The notes under the pieces were generated by a model that made no database searches, was not told the DNA's origin, and saw only the letters and a list, made by a program, of their open reading frames with translations. A DNA stretch of 5,275 nt from Candidatus Eiseniibacteriota bacterium (GTDB lineage Bacteria > Arandabacterota > Arandabacteria > JAGLYR01). Shown piece after piece: positions 1 through 5,189 of the stretch. The DNA lies in assembly GCA_023132135.1 (NCBI GenBank), contig JAGLYR010000165.1:1-5275 (forward strand). Direction: 5' to 3'. Position 1 is the stretch's first letter; every line of letters starts with the position of its first letter. The translations under genes and the position numbers were made by a program.

Positions 1-2762
1 AGGGCATCCAGATGAGCAGTACCAGGCCGCTCAGGCATAGGAGGTTCCCCGCCAGCGTGGTCGGCCAGTTCTGCCAGCTGAGCCAAGAACACCCCAGCCT
101 TGGAGCTTTCCTCGTTGGGTTTACAGTCCACGCCGAGATCGTGGAAGAGTTTCCGCAGCTTGATTCTCTCACGGAGATCTGGCCCGGGTAACTCTACCCG
201 GAAGTCCGTAACTGAGATCTTGGCCTGATCAAGCTGGCCCTGTGACAGTGTCGTCTCTTTGTGCGTGGCTCTCAAGTGGCCTGTCGTGTGGAGCATGATG
301 AGTGCGGCATCGACGGCGTCCCGTGGCCATCCATATGGACTGGCCTCGAAGGAAGCGCGAACTTCCTTGCCGCGCTTGCCGGCGCCGACCTCAGAGAACA
401 CGGCGGCACAAACGGGATGTTTCTCCGACGACTCGGTCCAGCCCAATGCTGACATGGCGGCACCGTCGCCGTTCTTGCCGCGGCTAATCACGTTTGTCCA
501 GCGATTGTCATCGCCATCCTTGAACTTGGGAAACAGCCGGTCAAGGGACGCCTGAGCGGCCCCTTCGATCTTGGCGACGAGGTCCAGTTCGAGCCGCTCG
601 CCACCGCCACCCTGGAAGACCTTTGCACCGTCAATCACGCCACGAATGATCTGGTTCCGAGCTGCCTCCGCTGTGGCCATACGTGCGGCCATGGCACCAC
701 GCGCTTCCCCGCCTTCGTCCGTGCTTGGAGCGCCCTTGAAATCTAGGGTGGCTTTGGCGGCGGCGTGCCCAATAATAGCTTTCTGGAGATCATCGGCGCT
801 GGTTTTGGGGACATAGACGTAGATGACCGGACTATCGCTGCCGGCAGCCCGGGCGTCACCCACGACGGTGCTTTCTTTCTCGCCCCAACCATCTCGGATC
901 CATACGGGAATCTCTCTTCCGCCTCTCGCCGGGGCGTCACTGCCAAAGTGGACAAGCAGCTTTCGCGGCTCCTTGCATTTGCCCTGTGTGAGCCGAATTC
1001 CCCTAAGGACCTCGCTGCAGGCGGCACTGAGGAGTGACGCCCGCTTCGTAGATATGGACGTTGGGTCGCTGTTGAGCCGGGTTTTCCGATTACGGAACTC
1101 TCGATCCCATTCGCTGCTTTCGCGCGTTTGAAGGCTGTATTCGTCATCGAGCTTAATGAGCGTCCCGCTGTCTACCAGTTTCTCGAGAATTCTGGGTATA
1201 TCCTTGCGAAGCTGCGTGCCGTCGCTGGACAGATCGGAGACGAGCAAATCCGCCAGCATCTCCGGCGTCGCCCGGACGCCAATGTCCGCGACTTCCTCAC
1301 GCGGGAGCTTTCTGATAAGGAAGATCAATCCGCAGAGCCGCTGGGCAAGTTGGCCTTCCTCGGTGCCATCATTCAGATTCCGAAGCATTTCGTCAATCTC
1401 ACGTAGGAGAACGCCACTCCGGAGCAGGTCGGGTTGGAGCTGTTCAAAAATAAAGTCCGCCGGTACAACTGTGCCAAGTGGTGCTTCGGCCGTCGCTCTC
1501 GCTGCTTCATGCACTATCTTAAGCTGCGTTCGCAGCTGGCTGGCCGTCCCGGGTACGTCCACTGCGCGAAGCACATGCTCCCAGAATCGTCGACGCGAAG
1601 GAAGGAGCGGGTAGTCATCTACAACCACGTCTCTGTCTTCCGCACGGGAGGCGATGGCGGTACTCGCCAGCTGACGGTCGATCTCGCCAGCGTGGGCTTC
1701 GAGTATCTCTTCCACCGCTGTCCGTTTGTCTGCCTTCTTGGCCAGGACAACACGGCGGGTGACTGTCTCAACATCGGAGTCAGACAGCTCGACGGGGATG
1801 GTGAAACGGGCTATAAGCTTCTGCAGCAACGGCATATCTCCTGCCAACGCCGTCTGGCCTGCTCCAATGACCAACACGCGACTATCAAGTTGCTTGCAGA
1901 GCGTTTCTGCAACCTCCTGAACGTCTGTCGACCGGATGGGGCTATCGCCTATGAACAGCTGAATCTCGTCGAGAACAATGATCGTGCAGGGAACTTGCTT
2001 CCCGACAGAGAGGATCTCCCGGACGAGTCGCGTAAACTCAGTCGTTGGAACATCATCCTTCACCGGAAACTGTGACCGAAGCGCAGCCCGAGCCTGCTTG
2101 AGGTCGGCGGCAAAATCGGGGTCGGCGGCAAGAACAGCCACGGCAAGGATGGGACTGACATAGAGATCATGAAGCTCGTCGAAGAAAGCCTTCCCAGCCG
2201 CCTCAACTTCTGTCCTCACTGCATCGAAGATGCCGTTCTTTTTCAACCATAGACAGAATGCGGCCTGCGGAAGAGCTTCGGGCAGACCCTTTGAACGAAG
2301 AATGATGCTGAGCACGGTCAACCGCACGCTCTCCCCGCCACCAGAGGGCAGCGTTCCCGACGCGGAGTGCAGGCCACCGCAACGTTTGCCGAGCGTGTCT
2401 AGCTCCCGCAGAAGATCCTGGACGTCCTGTGGCAGTTGGGCCAGGCCGCGTGCGGATGCTCCGTCGGTAAAGGTCGTGTTCACCCAGAGGTGGCGTAACA
2501 TCTTCAGCAAGTGCGACTTCCCGCTGCCATAGAAACCGCTCACCCAGGCAGCCGGCTGTGTCGTCGAGTCCACGCTGCCAAGAAACGATTCCAGGATGCG
2601 AATCAGGCCGTCCCGGTATTGTCCTTCGCAGACGAAGTGCTCGAGCTCGTACCGCAGCGTCTCGATCTCCTTGTCAGTTTCGGATTCGCGCACGGCAACC
2701 ACGCCGTCATTGAGGATCTTCGAAACCGCAGGATCTCGTTGAAACAGTTCACGGTTCTTCAT
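1..2762 (-). CDS. brxC: BrxC, BREX system P-loop ATPase (partial, C-terminus beyond left edge)
   Basis: This minus-strand frame stays open from the ATG at 2762-2760 to the window edge, giving 920 codons with no stop. BrxC proteins are usually about 1,100-1,250 residues, so roughly the last fifth is missing. Residues 76-83 are a full Walker A (GFYGSGKS, K82), and residues 261-266 are Walker B (IIVLDE, D265/E266). Residues 298-343 hold a sensor-like stretch (VIGAGQTAL) and then RFTIPVELSDSDVETV with arginines and KK, as in BrxC/PglY proteins. The remainder is mixed helical sequence without a motif I can name. BrxC is a cytoplasmic AAA-type ATPase, and in E. coli BREX it is needed for both host methylation and phage exclusion. 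The start overlaps the brxB stop (ATGA), and a GGGGTG Shine-Dalgarno lies 8 nt upstream (2771-2776). The ATPase assignment is firm; BrxC rather than another large P-loop protein follows from the neighbouring brxA and brxB. Confidence 0.92.
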   Translation of the reverse strand, partial: MKNRELFQRDPAVSKILNDGVVAVRESETDKEIETLRYELEHFVCEGQYRDGLIRILESFLGSVDSTTQPAAWVSGFYGSGKSHLLKMLRHLWVNTTFTDGASARGLAQLPQDVQDLLRELDTLGKRCGGLHSASGTLPSGGGESVRLTVLSIILRSKGLPEALPQAAFCLWLKKNGIFDAVRTEVEAAGKAFFDELHDLYVSPILAVAVLAADPDFAADLKQARAALRSQFPVKDDVPTTEFTRLVREILSVGKQVPCTIIVLDEIQLFIGDSPIRSTDVQEVAETLCKQLDSRVLVIGAGQTALAGDMPLLQKLIARFTIPVELSDSDVETVTRRVVLAKKADKRTAVEEILEAHAGEIDRQLASTAIASRAEDRDVVVDDYPLLPSRRRFWEHVLRAVDVPGTASQLRTQLKIVHEAARATAEAPLGTVVPADFIFEQLQPDLLRSGVLLREIDEMLRNLNDGTEEGQLAQRLCGLIFLIRKLPREEVADIGVRATPEMLADLLVSDLSSDGTQLRKDIPRILEKLVDSGTLIKLDDEYSLQTRESSEWDREFRNRKTRLNSDPTSISTKRASLLSAACSEVLRGIRLTQGKCKEPRKLLVHFGSDAPARGGREIPVWIRDGWGEKESTVVGDARAAGSDSPVIYVYVPKTSADDLQKAIIGHAAAKATLDFKGAPSTDEGGEARGAMAARMATAEAARNQIIRGVIDGAKVFQGGGGERLELDLVAKIEGAAQASLDRLFPKFKDGDDNRWTNVISRGKNGDGAAMSALGWTESSEKHPVCAAVFSEVGAGKRGKEVRASFEASPYGWPRDAVDAALIMLHTTGHLRATHKETTLSQGQLDQAKISVTDFRVELPGPDLRERIKLRKLFHDLGVDCKPNEESSKAGVFLAQLAELADHAGGEPPMPERPGTAHLDA

Positions 2763-3322
2763 TGGTCGCTCACCCCGTTGTGCAACGTGATGGGAACAGC
2801 TAGGTAGTTCCAGCCGTCCCGGGCATCCAGCAAGCGGTAATTCTTGTCCTCGTACTCTCCTGGAAAGAAGACCAACAACCGGCCCCGGATGTCGTTGGCG
2901 ATTTCTCTTAGAACGAGAGAGACGCGCGTGAATCCGAACAAACATGCCACGCCTCGGACGGCGACGACGGTATCTTCGTCTACGCCGTCAGCCGTGAGCG
3001 CGTCCCGAAGCAATCCCGCCACGAACTGCACGAAATCGCTCCGAAGCTTCATGGCAAGGGTGTCCGGTTCCTCGAAGTACACCTCTCGGTAATCCGCAGC
3101 AGCCATCCATCGCGCAAAAACACCCGTTAGATCGAGACTCCGCCAGTCGTGGCCATTCGAGGTCGTAGCCATCTCGAACAGATCAAGGCGGGCTCGTAGC
3201 CTGCGTTCGTCGGTCTTCGGGTACACGACGAAGATCGCCTTCTGGTCACCAGCGAGGTTGCGCTGCCACGGAGCACCAATATGCCTTCTGTATCGAGCCG
3301 CCAGATTCTCGATCCTTCCCAC
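2759..3322 (-). CDS. brxB: BrxB, BREX protein of the DUF1788 family
   Basis: The product is 187 aa, close to the usual length of about 190-200 for BrxB. Diagnostic segments are PWQ at 18-20, KTDERRLRARL at 36-46, the glycine-rich GVACLFGFTRVS at 124-135, FFPGEYE at 152-158 and DGWNYLAVPI at 169-178. The last two are the family hallmark near the C-terminus. There is no signal peptide or membrane segment, so it should be cytoplasmic. Its biochemical activity is not established; genetically BrxB is required for methylation and defence in E. coli BREX. The start is GTG (3322-3320), 4 nt after the brxA stop, with only a weak Shine-Dalgarno-like AAAGGCGG inside the end of brxA, which suggests coupling to brxA translation. 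Its TGA overlaps the brxC ATG by 4 nt. The gene looks intact and I see no serious alternative identity. Confidence 0.92.
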   Translation of the reverse strand: MGRIENLAARYRRHIGAPWQRNLAGDQKAIFVVYPKTDERRLRARLDLFEMATTSNGHDWRSLDLTGVFARWMAAADYREVYFEEPDTLAMKLRSDFVQFVAGLLRDALTADGVDEDTVVAVRGVACLFGFTRVSLVLREIANDIRGRLLVFFPGEYEDKNYRLLDARDGWNYLAVPITLHNGVSDQ

Positions 3323-3326
3323 GCGC

Positions 3327-4136
3327 CTACCGCCTTTCGTCCAGTGCCAGGAACCGAGAGAAAGCCATTTCGATCACCGCACCCGACTTGCTTATCTCGA
3401 GAAGACCAAGGCGCTTCGCGTCTATCGCCAGGTCCTCCAGTACCCCCGTGGGAGCGTCGAGCACTTCAGCCCAGAGCGTCCGCAGCAGCGCTGGCCCGCG
3501 GCTACCTTCCAAGAAGCCGACACAGAGCGCATATGCCGTCGCCACCGCTGTAGGGTCTACCCGCTGCCGGATCTTCCGGCCTCGCCCTTTCAAATGTCCT
3601 GATTGCGTCCATGAAGACGCTACGTTCCGGACAACCTTGTCCAGCGTGCTCTCATTGAGACGCCCACCGACCGACTGACTCAGCGCATCCTTGAGCTGCT
3701 GTCGAGCGAGCTCCTCGCCCGCCTGCATTTTCAGAATAGCGGGTGCGGTAACCTTGAGGAGTGGATCCCGCGCTAGCGCCAACAGTATGGCAAGCAGGGG
3801 CCGCCCGGCGCTGTCGGCATACCAGCATTGCCGCATGATCCAGAACAAGCGAACGTTCGGATCGAGAGCGTACAGCTCACTGAGCCTTTGGCTGGAGAGC
3901 CTACGCGTTGCAACCGTCCGCTTGCTGAGGCAGTTATCCTCTAGAATCGCCCGCAGGTAGTCATCTCGTGTCGCCGTTTGCGGGCAGCAGGAGAGAAGCA
4001 GACTCAATTCAGCCAGCATGATAGTGCGGCTTGTATGGGTCCCGCGGTCCCCAGTTCTAAAACCTGTCTCCGGTCGCTCGGCGAAGTGTATTTGCCCCTG
4101 CCTCTGCCGGAGCCTCACTTCGACCGGATCGCTCAT
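3327..4136 (-). CDS. brxA: BrxA-like protein (DUF1819 family), first gene of the BREX operon
   Basis: The product is a 269-aa, mostly helical, soluble protein. Conserved-looking blocks are RTIMLAELSLLL (37-48), KRTVATRRLSSQRLSELYAL (72-91), GRPLLAILLALARDPLL (111-127), NVASSWTQSGHLKGR (171-185) and AYALCVGFLEGSRG (201-214). These match my memory of the long BrxA/DUF1819 form in BREX loci; enterobacterial BrxA is shorter, near 200 aa. Homologues have been reported to bind DNA, and in E. coli brxA is less critical than brxB or brxC. I chose the ATG at 4136-4134 because GGGAGG (4148-4143) lies 6 nt upstream; a GTG three bases earlier (4139) leaves only 3 nt of spacing. The first 36 or so residues are polar and poorly conserved-looking, so a later start at Met40 is possible. 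It follows a clear promoter and sits 4 nt before brxB. Family identity is slightly less certain than for brxB because I recognise it by pattern and context. Confidence 0.82.
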   Translation of the reverse strand: MSDPVEVRLRQRQGQIHFAERPETGFRTGDRGTHTSRTIMLAELSLLLSCCPQTATRDDYLRAILEDNCLSKRTVATRRLSSQRLSELYALDPNVRLFWIMRQCWYADSAGRPLLAILLALARDPLLKVTAPAILKMQAGEELARQQLKDALSQSVGGRLNESTLDKVVRNVASSWTQSGHLKGRGRKIRQRVDPTAVATAYALCVGFLEGSRGPALLRTLWAEVLDAPTGVLEDLAIDAKRLGLLEISKSGAVIEMAFSRFLALDERR

Positions 4137-4142
4137 CACAAA

Positions 4143-4148
4143 CCTCCC
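4143..4148 (-). promoter_or_regulatory. Shine-Dalgarno of brxA (decides the start)
   Basis: GGGAGG on the minus strand lies 6 nt upstream of the ATG at 4136 and only 3 nt upstream of the GTG at 4139. The spacing favours the ATG as the true brxA start. The site begins immediately after the 3' arm of the leader hairpin (4149-4152), so folding of the leader could affect ribosome access. Confidence 0.7.
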
Positions 4149-4177
4149 GTGTTCGCCGGCTAGCTTGCCGGCTACAC
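4149..4177 (-). promoter_or_regulatory. GC-rich hairpin / tandem repeat at the brxA transcript start
   Basis: On the minus strand GTGT (4177-4174), one unpaired A, GCCGGC (4172-4167), a 6-nt loop, GCCGGC (4160-4155), an unpaired GA and ACAC (4152-4149) form a two-part stem with a 1x2 internal loop. The same bases are also a tandem direct repeat, TAGCCGGC twice (4174-4167 and 4162-4155) with a 12-bp period. The element lies between the -10 box and the Shine-Dalgarno and starts at the predicted +1. It could be an operator for a repressor, a 5' stabilising hairpin on the mRNA, or chance in GC-rich DNA. There is no T-run, so it is not an intrinsic terminator. Confidence 0.5.
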
Positions 4178-4181
4178 TGAC

Positions 4182-4210
4182 AATCTAGCAAATAGAACTT
4201 TGGGTGTCAA
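4182..4210 (-). promoter_or_regulatory. sigma70-type promoter of the brxABC operon
   Basis: On the minus strand a perfect -35 hexamer TTGACA (4210-4205) is followed by a 17-bp spacer and a -10 hexamer TAGATT (4187-4182; four of six consensus bases, including the key A2 and T6). The expected transcription start is near 4175, giving a leader of about 39 nt before the brxA ATG. It is the best promoter match I found in the 270 bp between the lipoprotein gene and brxA. It predicts housekeeping-level transcription of the defence operon, subject to whatever acts on the adjacent repeat. Confidence 0.75.
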
Positions 4211-4409: not shown

Positions 4410-5189
4410 TTATTCGACCTGAATGTCTCCGTGGCAGTAGAATCCAGCTGCGACCATAACACATCGGTAGAGATCGGCCGGTACGGGGCTGCCACTCTGA
4501 TCAGCCAGATCCCAGAGAACCGTGTAGTGGCCGGTTAGGAGTGACGCGTCGACCAGGGTTCTGATCACGACGCAGTTCCTGTCGATGATTTCCACGACGA
4601 CATCTGTTGCGAGAGGAAGAGCAAAGGGAATCGTTATGGCGCCCGTCGCAGAATTCGGATAGGCCGGGCCAAGACCGTGCGCCGAGGGAACCACGCCTCC
4701 ACTGGGGCACCAGTCACTCGAATCGCCGCCCAAGATCTCGCCAACCTCGTCTGTTTCGAGAATACCCGTGAAATCCGTCACATCATACGGGCACTGGACT
4801 CCCACCGTGACATTCACCACATCGGACGTTCCTGCGTTGCCACTTGTGTCGTAAGCTTTCGCCCGAAGGGTGTGGGCGGACGTCTCACCTTTCGGGAAGG
4901 CTCTCGTATCCCAGGAGTACTCGTAAGGAGCATCAATGTCCGTGCCGTCTGCAGGTAGCTGTTGATCGATGTAAAACAGTACCCTGTCAACGCCTTCGTC
5001 ATCGGAGACTTCCGCAGTTATGGTCACGGTGCCAGAGACATTCTCTCCGTCGGCCGGACTCGTTATTCTGATGGTAGGTGGCTCACCGTCGCAATCACAC
5101 GAACCATCAAGGCACCCGGTCGACGCAAGAACGACAATCATCCCGAATACCAGGAGCGTCTGCGACCGAGCAGCGGTCAGACGTGGCAT
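4410..5189 (-). CDS. Secreted lipoprotein with Ig-like and FlgD-Ig-like C-terminal domains
   Basis: The 259-aa product starts with a signal peptide: basic MPRLTAARSQ, hydrophobic LLVFGMIVVL, then ASTGC with Cys26 as the likely lipidated residue (the -3 Ser is not the most typical lipobox). A short Cys/Asp-rich linker (26-36) follows. Residues 37-129 form an Ig-like domain of the Big_3/Ig_7 style, opening PPTIRITSPADGENVSG and including a DxEGVDRVLFYID strand and AYDTSGNAG. Residues 130-165 are a linker with the motif DSSDWCPSGG. Residues 170-259 resemble the FlgD Ig-like/T9SS-like C-terminal fold (AYPNSATGAITIPFALP, then GHYTVLWDLADQSGSPVPADLY), ending in GFYCHGDIQVE. It is probably anchored to the outer envelope. 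No catalytic motif is visible, so the function is unknown, perhaps adhesive or structural. It reads in the same direction as the BREX genes, but the 270-bp gap and the separate brxA promoter make it independent. Confidence 0.85.
   Translation of the reverse strand: MPRLTAARSQTLLVFGMIVVLASTGCLDGSCDCDGEPPTIRITSPADGENVSGTVTITAEVSDDEGVDRVLFYIDQQLPADGTDIDAPYEYSWDTRAFPKGETSAHTLRAKAYDTSGNAGTSDVVNVTVGVQCPYDVTDFTGILETDEVGEILGGDSSDWCPSGGVVPSAHGLGPAYPNSATGAITIPFALPLATDVVVEIIDRNCVVIRTLVDASLLTGHYTVLWDLADQSGSPVPADLYRCVMVAAGFYCHGDIQVE

What the first reader, a model, noticed from the sequence alone, without database searches (positions are those of the whole stretch)
1..4210. Head of a BREX phage-defence operon (promoter-brxA-brxB-brxC)
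Seen: a DUF1788-type BrxB with FFPGEYE and DGWNYLAVPI, a P-loop ATPase with intact Walker A and B, a BrxA-like protein, and one promoter driving tightly packed genes. Known: this A-B-C order opens BREX type 1 and type 5 loci, while type 6 places brxE first. Inference: a functional BREX island in an FCB-like bacterium, with pglX, pglZ and either brxL or a helicase beyond the left edge. All visible catalytic residues are intact, so the locus does not look decayed.
Basis: partly seen in the sequence, partly recalled or inferred. Interest (0 to 1): 0.7.

Follow-up and report, generated by a model that had tools for sequence, protein, structure and literature searches.

The report
Front half of a BREX phage-defence operon
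This is the first half of an ordinary bacterial anti-virus system called BREX type 1, whose remaining genes sit on another fragment of the same genome; it looks intact and is a new member of a known kind rather than a discovery.

Summary
The finding is correct in substance. On the minus strand the window holds brxA (4136-3327), brxB (3322-2759) and brxC (2762 to the left edge), 4 nt apart or overlapping by 4 nt. PADLOC profiles name them BrxA (331 bits), BrxB (265) and BrxC (1358); NCBIfam names BrxC (664 bits, cut-off 400). The window is a whole 5275-bp contig, so brxC is cut by the assembly after 920 of about 1148 codons. The predicted missing genes exist in the same genome on contig C11: pglX (5' end cut off), then pglZ and brxL, whole and co-oriented. 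BrxL next to a BREX-1-type PglZ, a single brxC, and no brxE in front of brxA make it BREX type 1, not 5 or 6. All 59 relatives fetched keep the order A-B-C-X-Z-L as far as their contigs reach. Between pglX and pglZ sits a two-gene cargo, a TrlF/Ppl-type ATPase and a Schlafen-type protein; Schlafen backup effectors in BREX loci are already described (PMC12839542). Roughly 0.84 kb joining the contigs is missing, so their adjacency is inferred. Ordinary new member; interest low.

The parts
3327..4136 (-). brxA (269 aa, ATG start; a GTG one codon upstream at 4139 is also possible)
   Evidence: PADLOC PDLC02450 BrxA 331 bits, E 9.5e-100; 46-67% identical to BrxA of relatives
2759..3322 (-). brxB (187 aa, GTG start)
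   Evidence: PADLOC PDLC02469 BrxB 265 bits; PF08747 25.3 bits, cut-off 26.8; keeps all 30 residues invariant in 52 relatives
3..2762 (-). brxC, 5' part (920 of about 1148 codons), cut by the contig edge; Walker A at residues 76-83, Walker B at 261-266
   Evidence: PADLOC PDLC02489 1358 bits; NF033441 664 bits, cut-off 400; up to 75% identical over the whole stretch to relatives; motifs
4182..4210 (-). promoter-like site TTGACA-17-TAGATT with TG before the -10 hexamer
   Evidence: consensus scan, 10 of 12 matches; not proof of function
4143..4148 (-). GGGAGG, probable ribosome-binding site of brxA
   Evidence: read directly
4155..4174 (-). TAGCCGGC repeated at a spacing of 12 bp just downstream of the -10, a possible operator
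   Evidence: the repeat finder D2 and I3; short, may be chance; function untested

Best explanation
The window is the promoter-proximal half (brxA-brxB-brxC) of a BREX type 1 operon whose second half (pglX - TrlF-like ATPase - Schlafen-like protein - pglZ - brxL) lies on contig C11 of the same genome. By analogy with the studied type 1 systems, PglX with partner proteins puts N6-methyl marks on one strand of a short non-palindromic host motif. Incoming unmarked phage DNA with the same motif is blocked from replicating, with BrxC as AAA+ assembly platform, BrxB bound to PglZ, PglZ as metal-dependent nuclease, and BrxL as DNA-binding AAA+ ring. Shown here: gene identity, order, open frames, conserved motifs. 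Inferred: that the two contigs are adjacent, that the operon is expressed, and the mechanism.
For: Profiles for A, B, C and for X, Z, L on C11. Own-genome searches find one strong BREX set: pglX C11:2-3463, pglZ C11:7359-9707, brxL C11:9709-11757, all on one strand, neighbours overlapping by 4 bp or 1 to 15 bp apart. One brxC only. 59 relatives from many phyla: core genes always on one strand in the order A-B-C-X-Z-L as far as each contig reaches, 18 showing all six. Identity to BrxC across relatives tracks identity to PglX (Spearman 0.77, n 40) and PglZ (0.87, n 25), as expected of a co-inherited operon, though shared descent of the hosts could contribute. In relatives without cargo 841-899 bp separate the point where the window's brxC ends from the point where C11's pglX begins, so one short assembly gap explains both cuts. 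PglZ keeps the VDxLRFD, PTVTATxKP, TDHG and AHGG motifs. Mechanism from PMC12205998, PMC11341690, PMC11842806, PMC12839542.
Against: No sequence joins C74 to C11, and the brxC 3' end was not found in the assembly. The genome is a draft of 345 contigs at 96% completeness, so contig-to-genome assignment is itself an inference. PglX motif IV is NVPY, not the NPPY reported in the solved type 1 PglX proteins, although NVPY is kept in 32 of 35 relatives. NCBIfam's BREX-1 PglX model scores best of the BREX models but below its cut-off (276 against 500).
Confidence: 0.95

Rival explanations
1. BREX type 5 or type 6: the same A-B-C opening, with a second brxC or with brxE in front, and a helicase in place of BrxL.
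Against: brxL follows pglZ directly; PglZ matches the BREX-1 type B model at 905 bits against 46 for BREX-6 and 45 for BREX-5; one brxC in the genome; the gene in front of brxA is a Big_7/FlgD-Ig protein, not BrxE.
Confidence: 0.02
2. The window is a partial BREX remnant (brxABC only) and the C11 genes belong to a second, separate BREX island.
For: The two contigs are not joined and the brxC 3' end is absent from the assembly.
Against: Only one brxC and one convincing pglX, pglZ and brxL in the genome; the two contigs break at points that lie about 0.84 kb apart in cargo-free relatives; all frames are open.
Confidence: 0.03

Closest known systems
BREX type 1 (brxA-brxB-brxC-pglX-pglZ-brxL), subgroup with NCBIfam PglZ type B
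   Same: All six core genes, order and strand; BrxC AAA+ motifs; BrxL 971 bits to the PADLOC model and 502 bits to a solved BrxL (8emc)
   Different: PglX motif IV is NVPY; a TrlF-like ATPase and a Schlafen-like protein are inserted between pglX and pglZ; brxC is interrupted by a contig end
BREX loci L030, L038 and L042 in Gammaproteobacteria MAGs
   Same: Carry the TrlF-like ATPase (47-50% identical) after pglX; L030 and L038 also the Schlafen-like protein (54-56%) after it
   Different: BrxC only 56-59% identical; L030 also carries a HEC-01-type pair between brxC and pglX
Geobacter sp. UBA5735 locus L006 and planctomycete loci L059, L060, L062
   Same: Closest core proteins: BrxC 70-79%, PglX 61-62% and PglZ 71% (L006, L059)
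   Different: Other cargo genes; several are cut short by contig ends

Membership tests
BREX (any type) | BrxC/PglY P-loop ATPase | tested here: met
   NF033441 664 bits, cut-off 400; Walker A and B intact; C-terminal ~227 codons not in assembly
BREX (any type) | PglZ with intact metal-site motifs | tested here: met
   C11:7359-9707, NF033450 905 bits, cut-off 400; conserved motifs kept; not on the window's own contig
BREX type 1 | six core genes brxA, brxB, brxC, pglX, pglZ, brxL in one operon | tested here: inconclusive
   all six are in the genome, in two same-strand blocks on contigs C74 and C11; the joint is not assembled
BREX type 1 | BrxL (not a helicase) downstream of pglZ | tested here: met
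   C11:9709-11757, PF13337 426 bits, PADLOC BrxL 971 bits
BREX type 1 | PglX gamma-class adenine methyltransferase with motif I and motif IV | tested here: met
   DPCCGSG at residue 279; motif IV reads NVPY, a variant of NPPY shared by 32 of 35 relatives; Eco57I and MmeI Pfam hits
BREX type 1 | 6mA on one strand of a non-palindromic motif, and phage protection | not testable with these tools
   needs native long reads and plaque assays
BREX type 5 | second brxC, and a helicase in place of BrxL | tested here: not met
   one brxC in the genome; brxL present
BREX type 6 | brxE as first gene | tested here: not met
   the gene in front of brxA (5189-4410) is a Big_7/FlgD-Ig protein

The most novel reading that the evidence does not exclude
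This branch of BREX type 1 (PglZ type B) uses a PglX whose catalytic motif is NVPY instead of NPPY in nearly all members, which could mean altered catalysis (weak or absent methylation, or another way of marking self), and here it is coupled to a TrlF plus Schlafen backup module.
Probability: 0.1. Interest if true: 0.45.

Novelty: new member of a known kind. Interest (0 to 1): 0.15.

Why it matters
It adds a well-formed BREX type 1 locus in a poorly sampled phylum (8 genomes held) that looks related to Candidatus Eisenbacteria. It shows that this branch of BREX is spread widely: relatives at about 70-79% BrxC identity come from planctomycetes, deltaproteobacteria, Firmicutes and other phyla. 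The conserved NVPY motif in PglX is a small, testable oddity. Otherwise it confirms what is known.

Tried and rejected
PF08665 (PglZ) on the own genome hit only C76:5328-5897, which reads as a PorX-like response regulator with a PglZ domain (533 aa, next to a histidine kinase gene), not BREX PglZ; the real pglZ on C11 was missed by that model and found with an alignment of relatives. A search of the phylum (8 genomes) gave no other close locus. The pattern search used a sequence not taken from the window and is void. Rfam and tRNA scans were empty. The BrxC column of the first identity table was made in a wrong frame and is replaced. Structure prediction was not used because the family assignment was already clear. 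No paper in the library joins BREX with TrlF, or NVPY with methyltransferase; TIGR04141/DUF6119 gave one unrelated plant paper.

Full report
What is in the window. The window is an entire contig (C74, 5275 bp) of a draft genome of 3.4 Mb in 345 contigs. Its minus strand carries, from right to left, a Big_7/FlgD-Ig protein (5189-4410), a 273-bp gap, brxA (4136-3327), brxB (3322-2759) and brxC (2762 to the left edge). brxA and brxB are 4 nt apart, and brxB and brxC share ATGA. A sigma-70-like site stands about 45 bp before the brxA start; such a match alone is weak evidence.

Identity of the three proteins. PADLOC profiles give BrxA 331 bits, BrxB 265 bits and BrxC 1358 bits; NCBIfam's BREX_BrxC model gives 664 bits against a cut-off of 400. 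Pfam BrxB is just under its cut-off (25.3 against 26.8), and Pfam has no good BrxA match, so the identification rests on the PADLOC models and on relatives. Against 47-52 relatives the three proteins keep all or nearly all residues that never or hardly vary, including Walker A and B of BrxC and the FFPG and DGWNYLAVPI stretches of BrxB.

Truncation. The relatives' BrxC is about 1148 residues long. The window holds 920 codons, and the contig ends there. The missing C-terminal part was not found in the genome with an alignment of seven relatives, so it most likely fell into an assembly gap.

The rest of the operon. Alignments of relatives' PglX, PglZ and BrxL each found a strong match in the own genome on contig C11: pglX 2-3463 (first ~48 codons missing), pglZ 7359-9707 and brxL 9709-11757, all on the same strand. 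PADLOC scores them 1482, 1046 and 971 bits. Between pglX and pglZ lie two genes: an 881-aa TrlF-family ATPase (NF045780 518 bits, cut-off 350; weaker similarity to anti-phage Ppl) and a 413-aa protein with Schlafen AlbA_2 and HATPase_c_4 domains. Downstream of brxL is a TIGR04141/DUF6119 protein (C11:11919-13601, 497 bits, cut-off 35). C11 begins inside pglX and C74 ends inside brxC. In relatives without cargo the distance between these two points is 841-899 bp, so a single short gap would account for both contig ends. This is inference: there is no overlap between the contigs.

Type. Here BrxL follows PglZ directly, PglZ scores 905 bits on the BREX-1 type B model against 46 and 45 on the BREX-6 and BREX-5 models, and there is one brxC. 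It is type 1.

Relatives. A scan of GTDB genomes found 59 loci at 48-79% BrxC identity in planctomycetes, deltaproteobacteria, Firmicutes, gammaproteobacteria, Verrucomicrobia, Elusimicrobia, Eisenbacteria and others. In every one the core genes lie on one strand in the order A-B-C-X-Z-L as far as the contig reaches; 18 show all six. Extra genes sit between brxC and pglX and between pglX and pglZ in many of them. The TrlF-like plus Schlafen-like pair recurs in L030 and L038, and the TrlF-like gene in L042. Across relatives, identity to the window's BrxC tracks identity to C11's PglX and PglZ (Spearman 0.77 and 0.87), which fits one co-inherited operon.

How it works. From published type 1 systems: PglX is a gamma-class adenine methyltransferase that recognises a non-palindromic site (PMC11341690, PMC11842806; [quoted passage not shown] Schlafen RNases fused to a small histidine-kinase domain are described as backup effectors of BREX loci in about a thousand taxa (PMC12839542), which matches the cargo seen here. 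None of these activities was tested for this locus.

An oddity. In this branch PglX motif IV reads NVPY in 32 of 35 relatives and in this genome, NVPF in 2 and NPPY in 1, while the solved PglX proteins have NPPY. It is a conserved trait of the branch, so decay is unlikely; whether it changes catalysis is open.

Host. The phylum holds 8 genomes in the collection. Among 14 named genomes tested, RpoB is closest to a Candidatus Eisenbacteria genome (65% over the full length), and the genome encodes a PorX-like regulator.

Verdict. Observation confirmed, interpretation supported and sharpened to type 1. An ordinary, intact-looking new member of a known system.

Noticed in passing
L073 (C11) 1460-1471, PglX residues 487-490: Motif IV of PglX is NVPY instead of the usual NPPY; NVPY is kept in 32 of 35 relatives, so it is a trait of this BREX branch.
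   Followed up: partly
L073 (C11) 3460-7362: TrlF/Ppl-type ATPase and a Schlafen AlbA_2 plus HATPase_c_4 protein inserted between pglX and pglZ; the same pair is in L030 and L038.
   Followed up: partly
L073 (C11) 11919-13601: TIGR04141/DUF6119 'sporadically distributed' protein right after brxL, possibly a further defence gene; no paper found.
   Followed up: no
window 4410-5189: Putative lipoprotein with a Big_7 Ig domain and a weak FlgD-like Ig domain at the C-terminus, in front of brxA on the same strand.
   Followed up: no
L005 (C76) 5028-6629: PorX-like response regulator with a PglZ domain next to a histidine kinase gene; a false lead for BREX PglZ.
   Followed up: yes
L030 8137-9917: HEC-01-type ATPase and partner inserted between brxC and pglX in a gammaproteobacterial BREX locus; the same gene pair is found in several other relatives.
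   Followed up: partly
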